Shown: positions 40,406-44,290 of the stretch, piece after piece
How positions within the stretch are numbered: the stretch's first letter is position 1
Layout of the letters: each line of letters begins with the position of its first letter
Assembly (NCBI GenBank): GCA_903906315.1
Contig: CAIVJW010000198.1
Coordinates: 1-45,062, forward strand
Direction of reading: 5' to 3'
Origin: an uncultured delta proteobacterium
Lineage (GTDB): Bacteria > Myxococcota_A > Polyangia > Polyangiales > Polyangiaceae
DNA: 45,062 nt
Translations under genes and position numbers: made by a program
Notes under the pieces: model-generated
The model's input: only the letters and a program-made list of their open reading frames with translations
Database searches by the model: none
What the model was told of the DNA's origin: nothing

Positions 40406-40539
40406 TCCCTCATGGTCGATTGCGTGCACGTCGTTCAGCAAGGGGCGCGCGAGGGCGGAGGCGCGGTCCGTCGCCGAGGGGGAGGTGGATCGACGTCGAA
40501 CCATGGGCCTTCGGGTCGGAGTCGTGCGAGGCTCCGCGC

Positions 40540-41301
40540 GTGCCTTGGGTCCGAGCGATTCTACGAGGGCAGCGGGTCTACGCCCGCGCCGACGAGGCCG
40601 GCGCGCTCCGCGTCGAGGGCGGCCGCGTCGAGATCCGCTACAAGCCGAACGACGGACGGCGCTACCAGGCGCGCGCCGACAACCTGAGCGGCATCGAGGG
40701 GCCCGCGCTGCCGGAGGACACCTGCGGCCCGGCGGGTGACGTCGCCAAGCCGGAGAAGGCGGCCGCGTCCGCGGGCGGCTCGGCAGCGCCGGCCGAACGG
40801 CGCGCGGCGGCGACCGGGCGGGCCGCGGAGGGGCACGCTGCGGCCGTCGCGGCCGGATCGGTCATCGCGTACGCCGACGGCGCCTGCTCGGGCAACCCCG
40901 GGCCCGCGGGGCTCGGCGTCGTCATCCTCGACGGCACGCGTCGCATCGAGCTGTCGGAGTACCTCGGCGTCGGCACCAACAACATCGCCGAGCTCACGGC
41001 CGTGCTGCGCGTCCTCGACGAGGTCCCCGCCGACAGCGCCCTCGTCGTCCACACCGACAGCCAGTACACCATCGGCGTCGTGCAAAAGGGCTGGAAGGCG
41101 AAGGCGAACGTCGAGCTCGTCGCCTCGCTGCGCGCGGCTCTCGTCGGGCGCAAGGCCACGCGGCTCGCGTACGTCCCGGGACACTCCGGCGTGCCGCTCA
41201 ACGAGCGCGCCGACGAGCTCGCGCGCGAGGCCGTCACCGCGCGTCGTAACCGCCGCGCCGAGATCGGCAGCCCGCCCGCGACGCCCGCCGCCGACGCCTG
41301 A
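40540..41301 (+). CDS. rnhA: Ribonuclease HI with an extra N-terminal module
   Basis: 253 residues from GTG 40540; the frame is open further upstream but there overlaps the divergent lipoprotein gene's leader. The C-terminal RNase H domain (about 107-240) has the full active site: YADGACSGNPG (Asp113), NNIAELTAVLRVL (Glu151), HTDSQY (Asp173) and YVPGHSGVPLNERADELA (His215, Asp225), so it should cut RNA in RNA-DNA hybrids. Before it lie a compact 55-residue segment (MPWVRAILRGQRVYARADEAG... RYQARADNLSGIEG) and an Ala-rich linker. The segment is not the hybrid-binding domain of eukaryotic-type RNase H1. Its role is unknown. Confidence 0.9.
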   Translation: MPWVRAILRGQRVYARADEAGALRVEGGRVEIRYKPNDGRRYQARADNLSGIEGPALPEDTCGPAGDVAKPEKAAASAGGSAAPAERRAAATGRAAEGHAAAVAAGSVIAYADGACSGNPGPAGLGVVILDGTRRIELSEYLGVGTNNIAELTAVLRVLDEVPADSALVVHTDSQYTIGVVQKGWKAKANVELVASLRAALVGRKATRLAYVPGHSGVPLNERADELAREAVTARRNRRAEIGSPPATPAADA

Positions 41302-41339: not shown

Positions 41340-42938
41340 ATGCCTCCGAGCTCCGAGACGCCTCGCCCGCGCCCCGTCGTCCTCTGCGTCCTCGGCGGCT
41401 TCGGCGAGCGCGCGGAGCGCGAAGGCAACGCCGTACGCCTCGCCCGCACCCCGAACCTCGACGCGCTCTCCGACCGCCCCCGCACGCAGCTCGTCGCCAG
41501 CGGCCCCGACGTCGGGCTCCCGGCGGGCACCGCTGGCAGCGGTGAGTCGGGCTGGATCACCCTCGGCGCCGGCCGAGTCCCCGAGCTCGTCCGGACCCGC
41601 ATCGACCGCGCGATCGACGACGAAAAGCTCGCCGGCGACGAGATGCTCCGTCGCCTGTTCTGGCTCCTCGGCGAGCGCCGCGGCGCCCGCCTGCACCTCT
41701 TCGCGCTCGTCTCGGACGGCACGGTGCATGCGTCGATGCGCCACCTCCACGCCGTCCTCGAGGCGGCGCACCTTCGCAACGTCGAGGTCGTCGTCCACGC
41801 GATCCTCGACGGGCAGGACACGTCGCCGAAGAGCGCGTGGCGGTTGCTCGATCCGTTCCTCGCCTACCTCGACAAGAAGGGCACCCTCGGCACGGTCGCC
41901 GGCCGGCACTACGCCCTCGACCGCGACGGGCGCTGGGACCTCACCCACCGCTACTGGAAGGCGGTGGTGAAGGCCGACGGCCCCCGCTTCGACGACGCCT
42001 ACCAGGCGATCGCGTCGGCTTACGACGAGGGCCTCGGCGACGCGATGGTCGCGCCCGCGCGCCTCGGCGACTACGCCGGCGTCCAGGGCAGCTTCCTCGC
42101 GGACTTCGCGTCGGGCGCCCCGCGATGGGATTGGTGGGGCGAGGACGTCGCCCTCGCGGTCACGCTCCGATCCGACCGCGTCGGCCAGCTCGCGGCGATG
42201 CTCCGCGCGAAGGGCCTGCCGCCGGAGGCGCTCGATCTCGTGACCGAGCGAGGCCGCGTCTTCCACGCCTTCGACGAGTTCTCGCTCACCACGCTCACCG
42301 AGGCCGACCCCGCGCTCGAGCTGCCGGTGTCGTTCCCGCCCCAGCCGATCGCCGACACGCTCGGCGAGGTCGTCGCCCGCGCCGGCCTCAAGCAGCTGCG
42401 CTGCGGCCCGCCGGGCGCGCGGACGCACCTCGGCGCGTACTTCGGCGGCTTTCGCCCCGCGCCCCTCGACGGCGAGGACCGCGTGTTCCCCGCGGCCGCC
42501 GCCGACGCGCCCGACGGCGGGTCCGCCGAGGTCGCCCGCGCGGCCGCCGCGGCCATCGAGGCCGGCGCGCACGACCTCGTCGTCGTGAGCCTGCCGGCCG
42601 CGGACCGCGCGGCGCACACCGGATCGCTCGACGCGGCGGTGCGGGCGGTCGAGGCCGTCGACGCCGCGATCGGCGTGATCGCTCGCGCGACCCTCGCCGC
42701 GGGCGGCGCGCTCGTGGTCACCTCGGATCACGGCAACTGCGAGGACCTGATCGGCGCCGATGGGCCCCGGCCGATGCACACGACGGCGCCCGTCCCGCTC
42801 GTGATCGTCGACGACGCTCACCGTGAAGCGGTCCTCGCGCCCGGGCGCCTCGCCGACGTCGCGCCCACCGTCCTCGAGCTGCTCGGTCTCGCGCCGCCGG
42901 CGGCGATGACCGGCCGCTCGCTGCTCGCGCGCAGGTGA
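41340..42938 (+). CDS. gpmI: Cofactor-independent phosphoglycerate mutase homologue with altered active site
   Basis: 532 residues, full iPGM length and clearly homologous: REGNAVRLARTPNLDAL, LGAGRV, SDGTVHAS, HAILDGQDTSPKSA, GRHYALDRDGRW and AVEAVDAAIG. The metal-1 ligands are kept (Asp422, His426 in DRAAHTG; His480), as are Asp463-His464 of site 2 and His130, Asp160. But the first metal ligand Asp (LDGWG) is Gly19 (VLGGFG). The catalytic phospho-Ser in GNSEVGH is Gly68 (GSGESGW). The substrate Arg of DGRDT is Gln159, and the Lys of AETEKYAH is Ala360. Normal phosphoglycerate mutation is therefore doubtful; it may be a pseudoenzyme or have other chemistry. Ser67, next to the lost Ser, is the only nearby substitute. 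The stop overlaps the next gene's start (GTGA). Confidence 0.9.
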   Translation: MPPSSETPRPRPVVLCVLGGFGERAEREGNAVRLARTPNLDALSDRPRTQLVASGPDVGLPAGTAGSGESGWITLGAGRVPELVRTRIDRAIDDEKLAGDEMLRRLFWLLGERRGARLHLFALVSDGTVHASMRHLHAVLEAAHLRNVEVVVHAILDGQDTSPKSAWRLLDPFLAYLDKKGTLGTVAGRHYALDRDGRWDLTHRYWKAVVKADGPRFDDAYQAIASAYDEGLGDAMVAPARLGDYAGVQGSFLADFASGAPRWDWWGEDVALAVTLRSDRVGQLAAMLRAKGLPPEALDLVTERGRVFHAFDEFSLTTLTEADPALELPVSFPPQPIADTLGEVVARAGLKQLRCGPPGARTHLGAYFGGFRPAPLDGEDRVFPAAAADAPDGGSAEVARAAAAAIEAGAHDLVVVSLPAADRAAHTGSLDAAVRAVEAVDAAIGVIARATLAAGGALVVTSDHGNCEDLIGADGPRPMHTTAPVPLVIVDDAHREAVLAPGRLADVAPTVLELLGLAPPAAMTGRSLLARR

Positions 42939-44290
42939 AGGGGGCCGTGCGGCTCGGGCCCTACCGGCTGCTCGAGGAGGTCGATCGCCTTGGCGTGACC
43001 GCTACGTGGCGCGCGGTGCACGATCAGCTCGGCCGCCGCGCGCTCGTGAAGGCGCTCCGCCCTGCGGCCTCGCCCACCTCGGGGTTCGCCCGCGAGATCG
43101 AGCGGGAAGCCGCCGCGCTCGCGCGCCTTGACCACGACGGCGTCGTGCGGCTCTACGACTTCGAGCGGACCGACGCCGGCCCGTGGCTCGCCGTCGAGGA
43201 TCCGGGCGGTTTCTCGCTCGCGGACGTGATCGCGAAGGCACCGAAGCTCGCGCCCGAGGTCGCCGCCGCCATCGCGATCGGCGCCGCGCGCGGGCTCGGT
43301 CACGCCCACGAGCGGGGCGTCGTGCACCGCCACCTGTCGCCGCGCGCGTTCACCCTCACCCCCGCGGGCGCCGTGAAGCTCGGCGACCTCGGCGCGGCCC
43401 ACCTCGACGGCGGGCCGGCGGCTGCCGGCGACGGTGTCGAGGCGATCGGCCCGCCCGACTACCTCGCACCCGAGCAGATCCTCGGCGACCCGCCCGCCGC
43501 ACCGGCCGACGTCTTCAGCCTCGGCGTCCTGTTCTACGAGCTCCTCGCGGGCGTCCGGCCGTTCACCACCGAGGGCGCCGCGTCCGCCGACGTCGCTCGT
43601 CGTATCCGCGGCGCTCTCCCCGCCTCGTTGCGCGACGTTGCTCCGGGCGTGCCTCCGTCGCTCGAGCGCGTCGCGCTTCGCTGCCTCGCGAAGCGCCCGG
43701 AGGAGCGCTACCCCGACGCGCGCGCCGTCGCGGTCGCGATCGGCGTCGCCCTCGGCGAGCTCACGTCCACGCCCGAGGCGACGCTCGTCGCCCGCGCCCT
43801 CGCCGCGGCGCGCCTCGCCCCCGAGCCCCTCGGGTCCGGCCTCGCGCCGCCGCCCCCTCGCTCCCGCTCGCTCCTGCGCTCGCTCGGCCCCGAAATCCCC
43901 GCGTTCGCGGCGCTGCTCGCGATCCTCGTCGTCGGCGTGATCGGGCTCGACCGTGCGCTCGGCGGCGGCGCGCGCTCCGACCCGCGCGGCGCGGCCCAAC
44001 CGCGAGGCCTCGCCGGGCCGCGCGGCTACGTGCGGGTGCTCGTGCGCCCGTGGGCCGAGGTCCTCGTCGACGGCGAGCTCGTCGACGTGACGCCCATCGG
44101 TCGGCCGCTGTCCGTCGCGCCCGGCCGCCACTACCTCACGTTCCGCCACCCCGTCGCGCCCGACGAGCAACGCACGGTGGACGTCGCGGTCGCCCAGACC
44201 GTGCTGCTCGACGTCAGCATGCGCTTGTTGCGCGCGCCCCGCATTCCCGACGCGGGCCCTCCGCCCCCGCACCCGTCGGCTTCGCCGTGA
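42935..44290 (+). CDS. Pseudokinase-like Ser/Thr kinase homologue with TM helix and PEGA domain
   Basis: 451 residues; GTG 42935 overlaps the iPGM-like stop by 4 nt, so it is translationally coupled. The kinase fold spans about 1-270: ALVK (Lys39), DLG (151-153), LAPE (177-180) and ADVFSLGVLFYELLAG. The glycine loop is degenerate (EVDRLGVTAT). The catalytic loop reads HRHLSPRAF (131-139) instead of HRDLKPEN-, replacing the catalytic Asp by His133, Lys by Ser135 and Asn by Ala138. Phosphotransfer is therefore unlikely, while nucleotide binding could persist. A transmembrane helix (about 323-341) is followed by a PEGA domain (about 362-430, VRVLVRPWAEVLVDGELVDVTPIG) outside the cytoplasm. It is likely a scaffold or sensor acting with the iPGM homologue. 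Confidence 0.9.
   Translation: MKGAVRLGPYRLLEEVDRLGVTATWRAVHDQLGRRALVKALRPAASPTSGFAREIEREAAALARLDHDGVVRLYDFERTDAGPWLAVEDPGGFSLADVIAKAPKLAPEVAAAIAIGAARGLGHAHERGVVHRHLSPRAFTLTPAGAVKLGDLGAAHLDGGPAAAGDGVEAIGPPDYLAPEQILGDPPAAPADVFSLGVLFYELLAGVRPFTTEGAASADVARRIRGALPASLRDVAPGVPPSLERVALRCLAKRPEERYPDARAVAVAIGVALGELTSTPEATLVARALAAARLAPEPLGSGLAPPPPRSRSLLRSLGPEIPAFAALLAILVVGVIGLDRALGGGARSDPRGAAQPRGLAGPRGYVRVLVRPWAEVLVDGELVDVTPIGRPLSVAPGRHYLTFRHPVAPDEQRTVDVAVAQTVLLDVSMRLLRAPRIPDAGPPPPHPSASP

What the first reader, a model, noticed from the sequence alone, without database searches (positions are those of the whole stretch)
41340..42938. iPGM homologue without its catalytic Ser and a metal-ligand Asp
A full-length gpmI relative keeps the metal-1 site (Asp422, His426, His480) and Asp463-His464. 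It has Gly19 in place of the Asp of LDGWG, Gly68 in place of the phospho-Ser of NSE, Gln159 in place of the substrate Arg, and Ala360 in place of the substrate Lys. Four independent active-site positions are changed while the scaffold is well preserved. This points to selection for another role: a substrate sensor, or another alkaline-phosphatase-superfamily reaction using one metal or Ser67. Normal glycolysis would need a separate phosphoglycerate mutase elsewhere in the genome.
Basis: partly seen in the sequence, partly recalled or inferred. Interest (0 to 1): 0.8.

Follow-up and report, generated by a model that had tools for sequence, protein, structure and literature searches.

The report
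Dead glycolysis enzyme kept beside pseudokinase
In a branch of soil myxobacteria a glycolysis enzyme has repeatedly lost its active site after another enzyme took over its job, yet the protein is kept next to a membrane kinase that also looks dead, which suggests a second, non-enzymatic role.

Summary
Window 41340-42938 encodes a full-length iPGM fold (AlphaFold pTM 0.85; TM 0.85/0.89 to 1EJJ) without Asp12 and phospho-Ser62, and altered at N61, H66, R153 and K336. The same genome has an intact second iPGM. Of 68 aligned orthologues, 30 carry a roughly 20-residue insertion (GxFxxDF...WxWxGE). Of these 30, 22 lack a complete metal-2 site, with substitutions that differ between lineages; all 22 genomes have another phosphoglycerate mutase. 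All 1000 bootstrap rpoB trees need 4 to 9 separate losses. Dead copies in one genus evolve at dN/dS 0.17-0.44. Insertion tryptophans are kept in 22 of 22, including one copy with no metal ligand left. A transmembrane Ser/Thr kinase gene with a PEGA-like domain follows in all 30 loci (start and stop overlap here) and has lost catalytic residues in all 30, against 4 of 28 short-type loci. Most likely this is an iPGM pseudoenzyme kept as a non-catalytic partner of the membrane pseudokinase; the partnership is inferred from gene order only. A shared substrate-sensor role, or a reaction using Ser67, is not supported across the family and cannot be excluded for this one protein.

The parts
41340..42938 (+). 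pseudo-iPGM (GpmI 'type B', insertion clade), 532 aa
   Evidence: TIGR01307 351 bits (cut-off 330.65); PF01676 + PF06415; AlphaFold pTM 0.85 and Foldseek to 1EJJ
41394..41396 (+). codon 19, Gly in place of metal-2 ligand Asp12
41541..41543 (+). codon 68, Gly in place of phospho-Ser62
42075..42143 (+). clade-specific insertion 1 (aa 246-268) with G250, F252, D255, F256, W263, W265, G267
   Evidence: present in 30 of 68 type-B orthologues aligned, absent in the 38 short ones; W263, W265 and G250 kept in 22 of 22 dead copies, F256 and G267 in 21, D255 in 20
42207..42278 (+). second clade-specific segment (aa 290-313)
   Evidence: gapped in part in short-B; F311 22 of 22, R304 and P294 21 of 22 in dead copies; low pLDDT
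42935..44290 (+). Ser/Thr pseudokinase, start codon overlaps the iPGM stop (GTGA); HRD Asp -> His, catalytic Asn -> Ala, Lys and DxG Asp kept
   Evidence: PF00069 92.5 bits; motif table; overlap
43892..43960 (+). predicted transmembrane helix of the kinase (aa 320-342)
   Evidence: hydrophobic stretch in the alignment; helix in a low-confidence model
44024..44221 (+). PEGA-like C-terminal domain of the kinase
   Evidence: PF08308 hit in 9 of 26 aligned members, none for the window member itself; invariant P-W-A, G, T-P, G, H-P, A, R columns
40420..41301 (+). RNase HI gene just upstream
   Evidence: PF00075 87.4 bits; found just upstream in 20 of 30 insertion-type loci

Best explanation
A positional orthologue of the glycolytic enzyme GpmI has become a pseudoenzyme. 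Shown by sequence: in this clade the gene is followed directly by a transmembrane, PEGA-like Ser/Thr kinase gene; another phosphoglycerate mutase is present in this genome and in all 22 genomes with a dead copy; the metal-2/Ser62 centre was lost several times (4 to 9 on bootstrap rpoB trees, if never regained); the dead copies keep long open frames and, where it could be measured, evolve under purifying selection. Inferred: the enzyme had gained a second, non-catalytic job, marked by the W-x-W insertion. Once another mutase covered glycolysis the active site was free to decay while that job kept the protein. The likeliest job is to bind the cytoplasmic pseudokinase domain of the membrane protein encoded by the overlapping next gene, as a scaffold or allosteric subunit of an envelope-linked complex.
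For: Own intact second iPGM. 0 of 22 dead copies have a complete metal-2 site; each lost S62 or D444. A second PGM (iPGM 'A', GpmA or, besides these, ApgM) in 22 of 22; none found in 45 of the 46 intact genomes. The AU test rejects all dead copies as one clade (p 4e-83) and the one two-clade split tried (p 5e-4) on rpoB; loss counts without regain are 6 on the ML tree and 4-9 on 1000 bootstrap trees. dN/dS 0.17-0.44 in 15 pairs of dead copies of genus g43 against 0.28-0.50 in 15 pairs of intact copies of genus g47. G250, W263 and W265 in 22 of 22 dead copies. Kinase adjacent in 30 of 30 insertion-type loci and catalytically incomplete in 30 of 30, against complete in 24 of the 28 short-type loci that have it. 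Of 19 genomes without type B placed on the rpoB tree, none falls inside the insertion clade, while two (G072, G068), nested among short-B genomes, have lost B.
Against: No interaction, expression or biochemistry was measured. The kinase occurs order-wide (169 of 183 genomes); in 38 of 40 further loci looked at no iPGM lies beside it, so it does not need this partner everywhere, and it is also degraded in 17 genomes without type B. Active-site ligands are retained in dead copies about as often as other formerly invariant positions (0.60 against 0.62, p=0.22), so the whole protein relaxed, not the active site alone. G112 has GpmA and an intact B, so a second mutase need not lead to decay. A 2010 survey reports two iPGM copies in Sorangium cellulosum (PMC2964296, passages), a strain that seems not to be in my set. 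One dead copy (G151) has a TAG inside its matched stretch. No near relative of this genome exists in the set to measure selection on this very gene.
Confidence: 0.58

Rival explanations
1. Slow decay without function: after a second mutase arrived, type B is simply eroding, and long open frames survive because the DNA is very GC-rich.
For: Constraint fell over the whole protein. G168-G170 are extremely diverged (gene tree branches 1.3-1.9). 35 other genomes of the family have a second mutase and no type B. One dead copy (G151) has a TAG inside its matched stretch, near the C-terminus to judge.
Against: The 22 dead copies have open frames of 476-580 aa as trimmed, most at 44-50% identity to the window protein. 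dN/dS is well below 1. Insertion residues are invariant while catalytic ones are not. The kinase follows in all 22. No placed B-less genome lies inside the insertion clade.
Confidence: 0.17
2. Neo-functionalised enzyme: the remaining metal-1 site plus D463/H464 carries out another phosphatase, phosphodiesterase or transferase reaction in this species.
For: Metal-1 ligands, D463, H464 and most substrate-domain residues are kept in the window protein, and metal-1 in 9 other dead copies.
Against: Nucleophile and Asp12 are gone, and Ser67 is not conserved. Metal-1 is incomplete in 12 of 22 dead orthologues, so no catalytic set is common to them.
Confidence: 0.11
3. Substrate sensor: the protein binds 2-PG or 3-PG and reports glycolytic flux to the kinase.
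For: H123, D154, R185, R191, R261 and R264 are kept in the window protein. The title of 1O99 says the S62A enzyme was solved with a 2-phospho ligand.
Against: R153 and K336 are lost here, and over 15 representative dead lineages R191, R264 and K336 are kept in only 0.27-0.40.
Confidence: 0.1
4. Still an active mutase through migrated residues.
For: Pseudoenzymes with migrated residues are known (PMC10211241, abstract).
Against: No Ser/Asp replaces the lost pair in the alignment, and an intact PGM is present.
Confidence: 0.04

Closest known systems
GpmI, cofactor-independent phosphoglycerate mutase (TIGR01307; PDB 1EJJ/1O98/1O99)
   Same: Fold, two-domain layout, metal-1 ligands, most substrate-domain ligands; passes the curated TIGR01307 score
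   Different: No Asp12, no Ser62, altered R153 and K336, two clade-specific segments; should not be able to run the phospho-serine cycle
Pseudoenzymes in general (review PMC10211241, abstract and outline seen)
   Same: Loss of conserved catalytic motifs with retention of the fold; scaffold or allosteric roles in general
   Different: The listed results of searches (top rows only for 37, 58 and 84) named no iPGM pseudoenzyme; here two adjacent genes appear dead
pfk-pkn4 operon of Myxococcus xanthus (PMC2887360 and PMC6213207, passages)
   Same: A glycolytic enzyme gene beside a Ser/Thr kinase gene in a myxobacterium
   Different: There the kinase phosphorylates PFK; here the enzyme is iPGM, the kinase has a PEGA-like domain, and both look inactive. 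I did not test whether the kinases are orthologous
EcpK, tyrosine pseudokinase of M. xanthus (PMC12004946, search listing only)
   Same: A myxobacterial pseudokinase, linked to exopolysaccharide biosynthesis by its title
   Different: A tyrosine pseudokinase; its relation to the Hanks-type kinase here was not examined

Membership tests
GpmI / iPGM (active enzyme) | Family profile score and fold | tested here: met
   351 bits against cut-off 330.65; TM 0.85/0.89 to 1EJJ
GpmI / iPGM (active enzyme) | Phospho-Ser62 nucleophile | tested here: not met
   Gly68; lost in 18 of 22 dead copies
GpmI / iPGM (active enzyme) | Complete metal-2 site (D12, S62, D444, H445) | tested here: not met
   D12 and S62 missing here; complete in 0 of 22 dead copies
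GpmI / iPGM (active enzyme) | Complete metal-1 site (D403, H407, H462) | tested here: met
   D422, H426, H480
GpmI / iPGM (active enzyme) | Mutase activity | not testable with these tools
   needs protein
iPGM pseudoenzyme | Essential catalytic residues lost while the ORF and fold are kept | tested here: met
iPGM pseudoenzyme | Another enzyme covers the reaction in the genome | tested here: met
   intact iPGM at C385; 22 of 22 genomes with dead copies hold another PGM gene
iPGM pseudoenzyme | Purifying selection after loss | tested here: inconclusive
   met in the dead pairs of g43, G081/G082 and g45; no close relative for the window's own copy
Hanks-type Ser/Thr kinase (active), neighbour gene | Lys72, HRD Asp, catalytic Asn, DFG Asp all present | tested here: not met
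   K, H, A, D in the window; complete in 0 of 30 insertion-type and 24 of 28 short-type loci
PEGA-domain protein, neighbour gene | PF08308 match | tested here: inconclusive
   9 of 26 aligned members match, the window member does not

The most novel reading that the evidence does not exclude
A two-gene 'dead-enzyme pair': in a Sorangium/Polyangium-related clade a membrane Ser/Thr kinase first lost catalysis, its operon neighbour GpmI gained a W-x-W insertion and then, in lineages where another mutase covered glycolysis, lost catalysis too in several separate events (4 to 9 on bootstrap trees). The two dead proteins persist as one envelope-spanning, non-catalytic complex, which would have been a moonlighting function of a living glycolytic enzyme before it died.
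Probability: 0.4. Interest if true: 0.85.

Novelty: new variant of a known kind. Interest (0 to 1): 0.68.

Why it matters
Glycolytic enzymes are often said to moonlight, but the second role is usually hard to separate from catalysis. Here evolution appears to have done the separation repeatedly: the same gene at the same locus exists, in related species, as an intact enzyme with an intact kinase, as an intact enzyme with a broken kinase, and as a broken enzyme with a broken kinase. That gives a natural series for testing what the non-catalytic role is. It also shows that a curated family model (TIGR01307) scores a protein without the catalytic serine as a phosphoglycerate mutase, so automatic annotation would name it one.

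Tried and rejected
Ser67 as a replacement nucleophile: rejected, the column varies in relatives. Selective loss of active-site residues: tested and not supported, retention 0.60 against 0.62 for other invariant columns. Kinase as Pkn4 orthologue of the pfk operon: the gene after the kinase in 10 of the 40 genomes forms one family, LysM-like in the three members I read by eye, not PFK; I dropped the idea without a direct test. Hidden decayed iPGM beside the kinase in genomes without an adjacent B: an insertion-type profile found none in 38 loci, of which G067, G101 and G160 are cut short upstream. Kinase structure model: pTM 0.33 from a three-row alignment, not used except to place the helix. 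Genome-contig scan with one sequence gave 27 loci, most of them remote. IQ-TREE on the iPGM tree timed out; FastTree was used instead. The first residue table read minus-strand loci on the wrong strand and placed R261/R264 one column off; one search replaced it. The first rpoB run took wrong frames and failed; one search replaced it. Fisher values are not used as evidence: species are not independent, and the insertion set is B-bearing by definition. A draft of this report said at least three losses from the AU tests alone; since only one two-clade split had been tried, I counted losses on bootstrap trees instead.

Full report
WHAT IS THERE. The window gene 41340-42938 (+) encodes 532 aa with Metalloenzyme and iPGM_N domains and passes the curated TIGR01307 cut-off (351 against 330.65 bits). 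The AlphaFold model (pLDDT 82.5, pTM 0.85) matches B. stearothermophilus iPGM 1EJJ (TM 0.85/0.89). Metal-1 and Asp444/His445 are intact. The role of each residue is recalled from the iPGM literature, except S62, which the PDB title names.

SAME GENOME. G000 (8.8 Mb, 455 contigs, 98.55% complete) holds a second iPGM, 'type A', at C385:6636-8219 with all 19 scored residues; its nearest relative among the 18 type A proteins I aligned is that of G070, same family, 75% identical. It has no GpmA above the TIGR01258 cut-off and no ApgM match.

ORTHOLOGUES. Of 183 genomes in the order, 148 match P0001 at E 1e-10. I aligned 68 type B orthologues (30 with and 38 without the insertion) and 18 type A proteins. 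Dropped before the table: G091, G154 and the type A piece of G078; never put in: partial copies such as G065, G089, G098, G100 and G141, and G002, G048, G050 and G146. All 38 'short' B proteins are intact at all 19 positions. The 30 with a roughly 20-residue insertion (window aa 246-268) split: 8 intact (G108, G112, G162-G167) and 22 broken (G000, G069, G078, G081, G082, G113, G114, G129, G147-G152, G155-G159, G168-G170). None of the 22 has a complete metal-2 site; S62 is lost in 18, and where it stays (G069, G078, G155, G156) D444 is lost. The substitutions differ between lineages. Metal-1 is complete in 10 of 22. For G168-G170 the alignment is uncertain (about 28-38% identity).

SECOND MUTASE. 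All 22 genomes with a broken B have type A or GpmA: above cut-off in 21 and, in G078, as a type A cut by a contig end with intact N-terminal motifs; G078 and G114 also have ApgM above cut-off. Of the 46 intact-B genomes, G112 has GpmA; the other 45 show no GpmA or ApgM above cut-off and no second iPGM in the rows, except a weak extra match in G110, which one search shows to be 44 bits over 113 positions (G112's is 46 bits).

HOW OFTEN. rpoB was found in 24 of 30 genomes, 14 of them with a broken B. On its tree intact and broken lineages interleave. AU tests reject one clade of all broken lineages (p 4e-83) and one two-clade split (p 5e-4; other splits not tried). Counting losses without regain, rooted at G088, gives 6 on the ML tree and 4, 5, 6, 7, 8 or 9 on 6, 76, 377, 397, 137 and 7 of 1000 bootstrap trees. 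The iPGM gene tree puts the 30 insertion-type proteins in one clade (support 1.0).

IS IT KEPT. NG86 dN/dS between broken copies is 0.17-0.44 (15 pairs, G147-G152), 0.47 (G081/G082) and 0.12-0.34 (three g45 pairs), against 0.28-0.50 for 15 pairs of intact copies of g47 and 0.05-0.27 for nine short-B pairs. High GC makes these values rough. One copy, G151, has a TAG inside its matched stretch; its open frame still reaches query residue 524. For the window's own copy there is no near relative. Formerly invariant positions are retained at 0.62 in broken copies and the 15 ligands at 0.60 (p=0.22): the active site has lost its special protection but is not decaying faster than the rest. In contrast G250, W263 and W265 of the insertion and G247 and F311 near it are kept in 22 of 22, F256 in 21 and D255 in 20. 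G170, which keeps none of the seven metal ligands, and G169, which keeps only some of metal-2, still have D255, F256, W263 and W265.

THE NEIGHBOUR. The iPGM stop overlaps the start of a Ser/Thr kinase gene (42935-44290, GTGA; PF00069) with a transmembrane stretch and a PEGA-like C-terminus (PF08308 in 9 of 26 members, not in the window's). The kinase follows iPGM in 30 of 30 insertion-type loci, in 28 of 31 short-type loci of the same family (G146 counted with its sister G145) and in 0 of 7 loci of other families; RNase HI lies just upstream in 20 of the 30 insertion-type loci. The four catalytic residues (Lys, HRD Asp, Asn, DFG Asp) are all present in 24 of 28 short-type and 0 of 30 insertion-type loci; the six of genus g43 miss only the Asn and may still be active. 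In all 8 insertion-type genomes with an intact mutase the kinase is already incomplete, which suggests the order kinase first, mutase later. The kinase's TM-PEGA part is found in 169 of 183 genomes. In 40 further loci 38 show no iPGM beside it; 38 of the 40 kinases could be read, and 17 of these, all from genomes of the family without type B, are incomplete, so kinase decay is not tied to this iPGM alone. In nine genomes of other families and in G141 it is followed by one gene family, LysM-like in the three I read by eye, which hints at an envelope role.

RETENTION CONTRAST. 35 genomes of the family have a second mutase and no type B (type assigned by score; G091 set apart). Of the 19 that could be placed on an rpoB tree, none lies inside the insertion clade of the ML topology, and two (G072, G068) sit within the short-B clade; in G072 RNase HI directly abuts the kinase, as after a clean deletion. 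So these two short-B lineages deleted B, while insertion-type lineages kept it dead. Sixteen of the 35 were not placed, and genera g18 and g35 (and g19 of G091) are unrepresented.

READING. The best-supported account is a pseudoenzyme retained for a non-catalytic role that depends on the insertion; binding to the membrane pseudokinase is the likeliest form of that role but rests on gene order, overlap and co-occurrence only. I searched the held library for a described iPGM pseudoenzyme or iPGM-kinase operon and saw none in the rows listed; for the larger answers only the top rows are shown, and subscription papers are mostly outside the library.

Noticed in passing
L080:8776-10389 (G091:C241): A 538-aa frame reads as a circularly permuted iPGM: C-terminal half (matching 244-557 of the Sorangium-like protein) before the N-terminal half (26-234), with NSEVGH and DHGT kept but the LDGRD and SDGGVH motifs altered; the genome also has GpmA. 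A phylum sample of 282 genomes gave no match at 1e-60, which the tool says shows nothing without a positive control.
   Followed up: partly
L210-L249 kinase loci: The PEGA-like Ser/Thr kinase is found in 169 of 183 genomes of the order, mostly as one copy, and has lost catalytic residues in 17 further genomes of the family without type B (often DFG -> NFS or similar).
   Followed up: partly
L237-L246, around the kinase: In other families of the order the kinase is followed by a LysM-like gene family, and in G010 preceded by an OmpA-like and a YbgF-like gene (read by eye), suggesting an envelope role.
   Followed up: partly
window 41340-42938: TIGR01307 accepts this and some other dead copies (for example G069, G078, G114, G129) above its curated cut-off, so automatic annotation would call them phosphoglycerate mutases.
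   Followed up: yes
L142, L150, L152, L159 (G094, G088, G104, G105): Four short-type loci also have kinases with altered catalytic residues next to an intact iPGM, perhaps a parallel start of the same series.
   Followed up: no
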